Source: Methanothrix sp.
GTDB lineage: Archaea; Halobacteriota; Methanosarcinia; Methanotrichales; Methanotrichaceae
Reading direction: 5' to 3'
Assembly (NCBI GenBank): GCA_026394555.1
Contig: JAPKXZ010000021.1
Location: forward strand, 1 to 64,000
DNA: 64,000 bases
Program-made: the position numbers and the translations under genes
Notes under the pieces: generated by a model
Seen by the model: only the letters and a program-made list of their open reading frames with translations
What the model was told of the DNA's origin: nothing
Databases searched by the model: none
Shown: one piece after another, positions 10,462 through 12,027 of the stretch
Numbering within the stretch: the first letter of the stretch is position 1
How the letters are laid out: each line of letters opens with the position of its first letter

Positions 10462-10734
10462 ATGCTAAAACGCAAAAATGGATACAAGGCAATATCGGCA
10501 TCCGAGATATCGCAATATGTCTACTGCCCTGTATCCTGGTACCTGAAAAGAACCGGAGTGCAGCCGCAATCATTCGGCCTGAAGAGAGGAATCGATGCGC
10601 ATGAAAAAGCAGGGAGCAGGCTGATTCTTCTGGAGAGGCGGGAGAGGGCAGCCGGCATGTTCCGACTGCTGGGTTATTTCTCTGCGATTGCTGCTATTTT
10701 ACTCACAGGATGGTTTTTATGGAATTATTTTTAA
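10462..10734 (+). CDS. N-terminal part of a Cas4-like (PD-(D/E)XK) protein with C-terminal TM
   Basis: SEISQYVYCPVSWYLKRTG...G.DAHEKA (Cas4 N-terminal Cys and His motifs) then hydrophobic segment; stop 10732-10734. Confidence 0.7.
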   Translation: MLKRKNGYKAISASEISQYVYCPVSWYLKRTGVQPQSFGLKRGIDAHEKAGSRLILLERRERAAGMFRLLGYFSAIAAILLTGWFLWNYF

Positions 10735-11264
10735 TTTTATTTTTCTTGGTTTTTGCTCTCTTGATTTTGGCGGTTGCTTTTCAGTGGCTGTCAAAGAGAG
10801 AGTCGTCATCGGCAGAGACTATGCGCATGGTTTATGGAATTCCTGCGGGAAAGGTGATCTACTCAGATCTGGATCGCCCCGGAAAGGCCCTGTATTCCAG
10901 GAAACTAGGCATCAGCGGCAAGCCGGATTACATAGTAAAAGGCAGAGGCCGTAGCTTGATTCCTGTGGAGATCAAAAGCGGGCGAGCCGTGCAGCCCCAT
11001 AGGAATCACATCATGCAATTGGCAGCCTACTGCTACCTGGTGGAAGAGAACTACCGTCAGTCGGTACCCTTTGGGATAATTGTCTATTCCGATGCAAAAC
11101 AGCATAGAATCAATTTCGATAAATACCTGCGCTCCGAATTGCTGGCAACGGTAGACGAGATGAAGAGGACAATAGGACATGATTGTCCCAAAAGAACGCA
11201 TAACTACAAACAAAAATGCCGTCACTGTTCATTTAACGGGAGCTGCAAGAACAGTCTGCTTTAA
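10710..11264 (+). CDS. C-terminal part of a Cas4-like nuclease with N-terminal TM
   Basis: GKPDYIV, PVEIKSG, QLAAYCYLVEE and KCRHCSFNGSC (nuclease core plus Fe-S Cys cluster). Confidence 0.8.
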   Translation: MVFMELFLILFFLVFALLILAVAFQWLSKRESSSAETMRMVYGIPAGKVIYSDLDRPGKALYSRKLGISGKPDYIVKGRGRSLIPVEIKSGRAVQPHRNHIMQLAAYCYLVEENYRQSVPFGIIVYSDAKQHRINFDKYLRSELLATVDEMKRTIGHDCPKRTHNYKQKCRHCSFNGSCKNSLL

Positions 11265-11370: not shown

Positions 11371-12027
11371 ATGGTCATGATACGGCAGTTGGCTTTATTG
11401 GTTTTGTCATTGCTTCTGGTTTTGTTGCCCGCGGCTTTAGGGCTGCCTGACGAGGCAATTGGGCGTGTGGTAAGCGTGATCAGCGGCGACTCGCTGGGCA
11501 TAGAGATGCTGATCGCCGATGCAAGGACAAACAACATCGACAGCATCAAGCTCGCCGATATCCAAGCGCCCTCAACCGTAACCAAAGAAGGCAAAGCCGC
11601 CCAAAAATACGCCCTTTCTTTGCTCAAGAATAAGACCGTGTACCTCGATATCAATGACAATGCCTCCGGCGCACGAAACGAGTGGAGCCAGCTTATCTGT
11701 GTCATTTATCTCATGGATTCCGAATACCGCCCTGTCTGGCCGCCCGTTAACAGAATCCTTGTGGACGGCGGCTATGCCAGGCTCATTGACGAGAAGAATT
11801 GTGAATTCATTTCATCCGCCTGGTGGCTGCCTCCTCCCGTCTTCCCGCCGGGTGAAAATAGAGACCGGCTTTTGGCCATGCTGGAAGGAAGGCCTCAACC
11901 AGAACCGGTGACCTTTGTAGGGCCATCTTCCTCTTCGAACGGAGTGATAATGGGCAGTTCCAAAAAGGGCAGCATCTTGGAGAAGGACAGCGTATCCGGG
12001 CGCATGAGCATCGGATATCGCACCTGA
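11371..12027 (+). CDS. Secreted staphylococcal-nuclease (SNase)-like fold protein, possibly degenerate
   Basis: Signal peptide; 'GRVVSVISGDSLGIE...IKLADIQAPS...GKAAQKYALSLLKNKTVYLDI' resembles the SNase pattern with altered catalytic positions. Confidence 0.6.
   Translation: MVMIRQLALLVLSLLLVLLPAALGLPDEAIGRVVSVISGDSLGIEMLIADARTNNIDSIKLADIQAPSTVTKEGKAAQKYALSLLKNKTVYLDINDNASGARNEWSQLICVIYLMDSEYRPVWPPVNRILVDGGYARLIDEKNCEFISSAWWLPPPVFPPGENRDRLLAMLEGRPQPEPVTFVGPSSSSNGVIMGSSKKGSILEKDSVSGRMSIGYRT

What the first reader, a model, noticed from the sequence alone, without database searches (positions are those of the whole stretch)
10462..11264. Membrane-anchored Cas4-like nuclease split over two frames with a slippery T5 immediately before the first stop
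ORF A has the Cas4-type N-terminal Cys (YCP) and His (G..AHE) motifs plus a C-terminal hydrophobic helix. ORF B has a hydrophobic helix followed by GKPD, EIKSG, QLAAY and a CRHCSFNGSC cluster. Neither ORF alone holds all active-site and Fe-S residues. The A frame ends TAT TTT TAA (T5 at 10728-10732). A -1 slip there reads directly into LILFFLVFALL of ORF B, giving one protein with a TM hairpin inside the nuclease. The options are programmed frameshift, a coupled heterodimer, or an indel. No CRISPR array or other cas gene is visible here.
Basis: partly seen in the sequence, partly recalled or inferred. Interest (0 to 1): 0.68.

Follow-up and report, generated by a model that had tools for sequence, protein, structure and literature searches.

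The report
Two-gene membrane-anchored Cas4-like nuclease
Two overlapping genes encode two membrane-anchored halves of one Cas4-type DNA-cutting enzyme; the split is old and shared by many archaea and some bacteria, so it is a real, apparently undescribed design and not a frameshift trick or a sequencing error.

Summary
ORF A (10462-10734) and ORF B (10710-11264) are complementary halves of a Cas4/PD-(D/E)XK nuclease, each with one membrane helix. A carries the first Fe-S cysteine and the His; B carries D-E-K-Q and three cysteines.

The slippery-T5 idea fails. The T5 is missing in many species of the same genus; a sister genus uses the other reading frame; in 12 Chloroflexota loci B's open frame begins downstream of A's stop. 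An assembly indel fails too: the split recurs in independent assemblies, both genes are under purifying selection, and B's own start codons are conserved.

What remains is a two-gene heterodimer with a coupled, overlapping start. I found 101 split and 28 single-ORF family members (Methanotrichaceae, other Halobacteriota, Thermoplasmatota, Asgard, Chloroflexota, WOR-3). In single-ORF members the same membrane hairpin sits inside one nuclease (AlphaFold pLDDT 93.7). No CRISPR context, viral relatives or conserved cross-phylum neighbours were found, and no description turned up in the papers searched.

Function is inferred: a cytosol-facing nuclease held at the membrane, perhaps against entering DNA. 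Side finding: in most split Thermoplasmatota, B's only plausible start is AUA behind a strong Shine-Dalgarno.

The parts
10462..10734 (+). ORF A: N-terminal half of the Cas4-like nuclease with a C-terminal membrane helix (90 aa)
   Evidence: PADLOC Cas4 N-terminal match E 1.4e-5; conserved in all 29 aligned pairs
10710..11264 (+). ORF B: N-terminal membrane helix followed by the C-terminal half of the Cas4-like nuclease (184 aa; alternative ATG at 10719)
10710..10734 (+). overlap of A and B: B start codons ATG 10710 (-25) and ATG 10719 (-16), A stop TAA 10732-10734
   Evidence: -25 ATG/GTG in 12 of 12 and -16 ATG in 10 of 12 aligned members of the genus
10728..10732 (+).
10525..10527 (+). Cys22 of A: first of four predicted Fe-S cysteines
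   Evidence: invariant in 29/29
10600..10602 (+). His47 of A: predicted active-site His
   Evidence: invariant in 29/29
10666..10731 (+). membrane helix of A
   Evidence: hydrophobic helix in 29/29 A proteins; positive N-flank
10719..10790 (+). membrane helix of B
   Evidence: hydrophobic helix in 29/29 B proteins; positive C-flank; one helix 2-42 in the AF2 model
10926..10976 (+). Asp73, Glu87, Lys89 of B: PD-(D/E)XK catalytic residues
   Evidence: D 131, E 129, K 131 of 132 family members
11217..11246 (+). Cys170, Cys173, Cys179 of B: the remaining three predicted Fe-S cysteines
   Evidence: 132/132 family members

Best explanation
A and B are the two subunits of one membrane-anchored, cytosol-facing Cas4-type nuclease. 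Each subunit has one membrane helix, and the two helices form the hairpin that single-ORF relatives carry inside one chain. The active site (His from A; Asp, Glu, Lys from B) and the predicted 4Fe-4S cluster (one Cys from A, three from B) can only be completed when A and B pair. B is translated from its own start, which overlaps the end of A, so the two are made together from one message. Shown by sequence: the complementary halves, conserved residues, helices, conserved split, own start codons, and the existence of fused relatives. Inferred: heterodimer assembly, Fe-S binding, nuclease activity, topology, coupled translation. Most likely role, inferred only: a 5'-3' DNA exonuclease kept at the membrane so that it acts on DNA entering there (virus, plasmid or taken-up DNA) and not on the chromosome.
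For: Invariant Cys and His in A; D/E/K/Q and three Cys in nearly all of 132 members. 101 split versus 28 single-ORF members in the tree set, with the split always between the two helices. One genus of another Halobacteriota family has both states (L170, L171, L174 split; L172, L175, L176 fused). AF2 of fused L172: pLDDT 93.7, pTM 0.89, two long helices H41-87 and H95-129 inserted in the nuclease; best PDB match is the I-C Cas4, then ACE1, Dna2 and AdnAB. B alone models less well (pTM 0.71). Helices in 29/29 of A and of B, with charge flanks that put both nuclease halves in the cytosol. Selection on B starts: the A-frame Leu codon before the -16 ATG is TTA/CTA in 12/12, against 7% NNA Leu codons in window genes. 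dN/dS 0.10-0.29.
Against: No direct evidence of a complex, of Fe-S binding or of nuclease activity. The function is not supported by any conserved neighbour. AF2 could be run only on a fused relative and on B alone, not on the A+B pair of this window. In two genus members (L011, L012) the -16 codon is ACG, and two Chloroflexota B genes had no detectable A.
Confidence: 0.85

Rival explanations
1. Programmed -1 frameshift at the T5 before the A stop makes one fused protein with a membrane hairpin.
For: The window site TAT TTT TAA allows a P-site TTT to re-pair at -1 and continue into B; the same run is in L005, L006 and L010. Fused relatives with exactly this architecture exist.
Against: The last codon is CTC, ATC, TTC, TCT, TCA or TTA in the other genus members. 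Genus g5 (L021-L026) has B in the other register. Twelve Chloroflexota loci have B's open frame starting after A's stop. B's own start codons are under selection.
Confidence: 0.05
2. Sequencing or assembly indel, or recent pseudogenisation of a single ORF.
For: Homopolymers at the junction; the window lies in a draft genome of 75 contigs.
Against: The same two-ORF layout is in independent assemblies (L005/L034, L006/L036, L035, L037-L041) and in a single-contig 1,879,471-bp genome (G039); dN/dS well below 1 on both sides; all catalytic and Cys residues kept.
Confidence: 0.02
3. A and B are two separate membrane proteins that work apart (B as a reduced nuclease, A as a regulator or remnant).
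For: Separate genes, in some Chloroflexota up to about 200 bases apart; two Chloroflexota B genes without a detectable A.
Against: A keeps exactly the His and Cys that B lacks, in 29/29; the halves are fused in 28 members; nearly every B has A directly upstream.
Confidence: 0.08
4. On the role: membrane-associated DNA repair or replication-fork processing (housekeeping) instead of defence against entering DNA.
For: Present in 211 of 341 sampled Thermoplasmatota genomes; no defence neighbours; mostly phylum-wise clustering in the tree.
Against: Patchy within the window's genus: 5 of 12 genomes at least 90% complete; a membrane anchor has no evident use in ordinary repair.
Confidence: 0.4

Closest known systems
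Cas4 (CRISPR adaptation nuclease; Pfam Cas_Cas4/DUF83, TIGR00372; PDB 8d3l, 4r5q, 7mi4, 4ic1)
   Same: PD-(D/E)XK core, His, D-E-K, QxxxY and four cysteines placed 1+3; best sequence and fold matches
   Different: not near CRISPR or cas genes; a membrane hairpin between the His and the Asp motifs; two genes instead of one
solo-Cas4 (Hudaiberdiev et al. 2017, PMC5704561)
   Same: Cas4 family outside CRISPR loci in archaea and Chloroflexi
   Different: that survey's main text has no mention of 'split', 'fission' or hydrophobic segments; its one 'membrane' hit is an unrelated gene name. The window genome has separate Cas4-Cas1 fusions, G000:C28
ACE1, Argonaute-associated Cas4 family protein (PDB 9iab, 9iac)
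   Same: second-best fold match
   Different: single chain of 266-269 residues in the PDB entries; its other features were not compared here
SNIPE (PMC13190303)
   Same: membrane-bound nuclease facing the cytosol; a model for how anchoring can spare the chromosome
   Different: GIY-YIG nuclease with DUF4041, single chain; not homologous. Functional analogy only

Membership tests
Cas4 / PD-(D/E)XK superfamily | catalytic D, (D/E)xK, Q and active-site His | tested here: met
   D73/E87/K89/Q103 in B, His47 in A
Cas4 / PD-(D/E)XK superfamily | four Fe-S cysteines, one N-terminal and three C-terminal | tested here: met
   Cys22 in A 29/29; Cys170, 173, 179 in B 132/132. Cluster binding itself not testable
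Cas4 / PD-(D/E)XK superfamily | Cas4 fold and profile match | tested here: met
   TIGR00372 93.5 bits over cut-off 65 for B; Foldseek best hits Cas4
CRISPR-associated Cas4 | gene next to cas1/cas2 or a CRISPR array | tested here: not met
   no array in the window; neighbours Trm5-like, ProRS, SpoIIM, PAN-like ATPase and others; no cas genes in neighbour clusters of relatives
solo-Cas4 | Cas4 family gene outside CRISPR-cas loci | tested here: met
solo-Cas4 | single soluble polypeptide as usually described | tested here: not met
   two chains, each with a TM helix; single-ORF relatives also carry the hairpin
programmed -1 frameshift gene | conserved slippery site in an overlap of constant register | tested here: not met
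SNIPE-like entry-blocking nuclease | DUF4041 and GIY-YIG domains | tested here: not met
   no such match in the Pfam scan of A, B and the fused read-through
SNIPE-like entry-blocking nuclease | cuts incoming DNA at the membrane | not testable with these tools
   needs an experiment

The most novel reading that the evidence does not exclude
A cross-phylum family of membrane nucleases in which active site and Fe-S cluster are shared by two separately encoded membrane proteins, so that activity exists only where the pair assembles at the membrane; and in Thermoplasmatota the second chain is started from a conserved AUA codon (28 of 37 loci with the -4 codon in B's frame) in an AUAG/AUAA stop-start overlap behind a strong Shine-Dalgarno, which would tie its synthesis to termination of the first.
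Probability: 0.5. Interest if true: 0.75.

Novelty: new variant of a known kind. Interest (0 to 1): 0.62.

Why it matters
Cas4 is known as the CRISPR spacer-trimming nuclease, and solo Cas4 proteins have no known role. This shows a large, so far undescribed branch that is built into the membrane and, in most members examined, made as two halves that each lack part of the active site. It gives solo Cas4 a testable cellular place (the inner face of the membrane), explains why database annotation calls half of it 'CRISPR-associated Cas4' in loci without CRISPR, and offers closely related split and fused versions for experiments on why a nuclease would be divided. The conserved AUA start in Thermoplasmatota would be a rare case of a noncanonical start kept by selection.

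Tried and rejected
Programmed frameshift: rejected on lack of slip-site conservation, opposite register in g5 and no frame overlap in 12 Chloroflexota loci. Indel or pseudogene: rejected. A frameshift explanation for the Thermoplasmatota junctions (GGTGATNNNATAR): no re-pairing of the last tRNA fits the varied last codons (ATA, CTA, TTA, TCA, ACA), so AUA initiation is preferred, unproven. AUA start as a general habit of those genomes: the signal is at chance level elsewhere (14 hits, 5 of them this gene, against 11 in the reversed control, six genomes). Conserved neighbours as a clue to function: only lineage-specific ones. Viral relatives: none in viral contigs. Literature: no paper held with membrane or split Cas4 phrases. 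A first regular-expression count of catalytic residues misread Chloroflexota and was replaced by an alignment-based count.

Full report
Observation. ORF A (10462-10734) and ORF B (10710-11264) are present as described, with A ending TAT TTT TAA and T5 at 10728-10732. B has its own ATG codons at 10710 and 10719, inside the end of A. B matches Cas_Cas4 and TIGR00372 above its cut-off. A matches positions 4-48 and B positions 35-160 of one and the same PADLOC Cas4 model: the two ORFs are complementary pieces of one family.

Conservation of the split. In the window's family (Methanotrichaceae; family f1) A and B lie next to each other as separate ORFs in every genome where both sides of the junction are on the contig, including a single-contig genome, G039, of 1,879,471 bases (a length that I recall as that of Methanothrix thermoacetophila PT; not checked here). 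A single scan of named genomes found the pair in Methanothrix MAGs, Thermoplasmatota, one Lokiarchaeote, one WOR-3 and Ktedonobacterales. Whole-genome searches with the B alignment at E <= 1e-20 matched 211 of 341 Thermoplasmatota, 87 of 301 Chloroflexota and 29 of 295 Halobacteriota genomes; in Asgard 6 of 148. Some of the weaker hits, notably four of the six Asgard ones and many of the Halobacteriota ones, match only the nuclease core and look like ordinary Cas4.

Split and fused forms. I fetched and classified loci. In the tree set 101 members are split, 28 are a single ORF and 3 have no detectable A. Single-ORF members hold a hydrophobic hairpin of two helices, or four, exactly between the His motif and the G(K/R)PD motif; split members are cut between the first and the last of these helices. 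In one genus of another Halobacteriota family both states occur (L170, L171, L174 split; L172, L175, L176 fused). The tree needs at least five changes between the states; it has few columns and many open forks, so I draw no firm conclusion on which state came first.

Why not a frameshift. In the window's genus the codon before A's stop is TTT, CTC, ATC, TTC, TCT, TCA or TTA; only the window, L005, L006 and L010 of the 12 species have a TTT preceded by T. Genus g5 (L021-L026) has B in the +1 register, with an ATGAATGA overlap. In 12 Chloroflexota loci B's open frame starts downstream of A's stop, so no shift could join the frames. B's start codons are kept instead: -25 is ATG or GTG in 12 of 12 and -16 is ATG in 10 of 12 species; the A-frame leucine codon that supplies the A of the -16 ATG is TTA or CTA in 12 of 12, while such codons make up 7% of Leu codons in eight window genes. 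The species are related, so these counts are not independent trials. dN/dS is 0.10-0.29 for A and 0.12-0.20 for B outside the overlap.

Anatomy. In 29 aligned pairs A keeps Cys22, His47, Glu15 and Trp26 without exception. Over 132 members B keeps Asp73 in 131, Glu87 in 129, Lys89 in 131, Gln103 in 129 and Cys170, Cys173, Cys179 in all. The few losses include three Ktedonobacterales (L051, L052: Glu; L120: Asp), which may be inactive. Every A has a C-terminal and every B an N-terminal hydrophobic helix; net charge is +2.6 before A's helix and +3.4 after B's, near zero or negative on the other sides. By the positive-inside rule both nuclease halves face the cytosol.

Structure. AlphaFold2 on the fused relative L172 gave pLDDT 93.7 and pTM 0.89, with helices 41-87 and 95-129 as a long hairpin. 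Foldseek's best PDB matches are type I-C Cas4, ACE1, AdnAB, Dna2 and MGME1. Window B alone gave pLDDT 89.0 and pTM 0.71, matching Cas4/Cas1, Cas4, SSO0001 and ACE1. A profile search of PDB sequences gave four Cas4-family hits. The pair A+B could not be modelled with the tool.

Context. No CRISPR array in the window. Neighbours in the window are a Trm5-type methyltransferase, a proteasome-type AAA ATPase, ProRS, SpoIIM, LysE and a beta-CASP protein. Trm5 and a secreted-looking protein (11371-12027) recur in Methanothrix only; other lineages have other neighbours. The genome has its own Cas4-Cas1 fusion genes elsewhere. No relative was found in the viral contigs. In the window's genus the pair is in 5 of 12 genomes that are at least 90% complete (my count), so it is accessory there.

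How it probably works. The best reading is a two-subunit nuclease that assembles at the membrane, co-translated from overlapping genes, with active site and Fe-S cluster completed only in the pair. Membrane placement could restrict it to entering DNA, as shown experimentally for the unrelated nuclease SNIPE, whose anchor keeps it off the chromosome (PMC13190303). A soluble Cas4-like nuclease in Synechococcus reduces transfer or maintenance of a plasmid (PMC10653904). These are analogies. A repair role is a live rival.

Known or new. The Cas4 survey (PMC5704561) describes solo-Cas4 but its main text mentions no split or membrane form; its supplements were not read. Phrase searches found nothing. 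I therefore rate it a new variant of a known kind: Cas4 family by sequence and fold, but membrane-built and usually in two chains.

Side finding. In 28 of the 37 split Thermoplasmatota-type loci that have the -4 codon in B's frame (one of the 37, L050, is a Lokiarchaeote), B's codon at -4 is ATA, five bases after a (G/A)GGTG Shine-Dalgarno core; others have ATG (3), TTG (2), CTG (1), TTA (2) or GTA (1). In some the next ordinary start is 80-147 codons downstream (L067, L046, L069). The Lokiarchaeote L050 shares neighbours with this clade and probably acquired the locus from it. The signal is not used elsewhere in six such genomes above chance.

Noticed in passing
L042-L048, L050, L062-L070, L073, L074, L077, L079, L081-L084, L156, L157, L160 (junction of A and B): B's only plausible start codon is AUA in an ATAG/ATAA overlap with A's stop, behind a strong Shine-Dalgarno; conserved in 28 of 37 loci with the -4 codon in frame.
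   Followed up: partly
L051, L052, L120 (Ktedonobacterales): Catalytic Glu replaced by Ala/Val in L051 and L052, and Asp by Thr in L120, while all cysteines are kept: perhaps inactive members.
   Followed up: partly
L050 (Lokiarchaeota MAG) with L042-L048: The Loki locus shares two neighbour families (c3, which looks like a release-factor-type protein, and c7, a small protein) with Thermoplasmatota, which suggests horizontal transfer of the segment, or a binning error.
   Followed up: no
window 11371-12027: Protein with an N-terminal signal-like helix that looks like a staphylococcal-nuclease-type protein (my reading; no Pfam match at 1e-5), directly downstream of B in six of the Methanothrix loci.
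   Followed up: no
L158: A's frame ends early at a TGA one base off the usual register after a T6 run, while the AUA start of B is intact; possible homopolymer error in that assembly.
   Followed up: no
L170 against L171: In L170 both A's TGA stop and B's overlapping GTG start are lost by the same base change, leaving no ordinary start near the junction.
   Followed up: no
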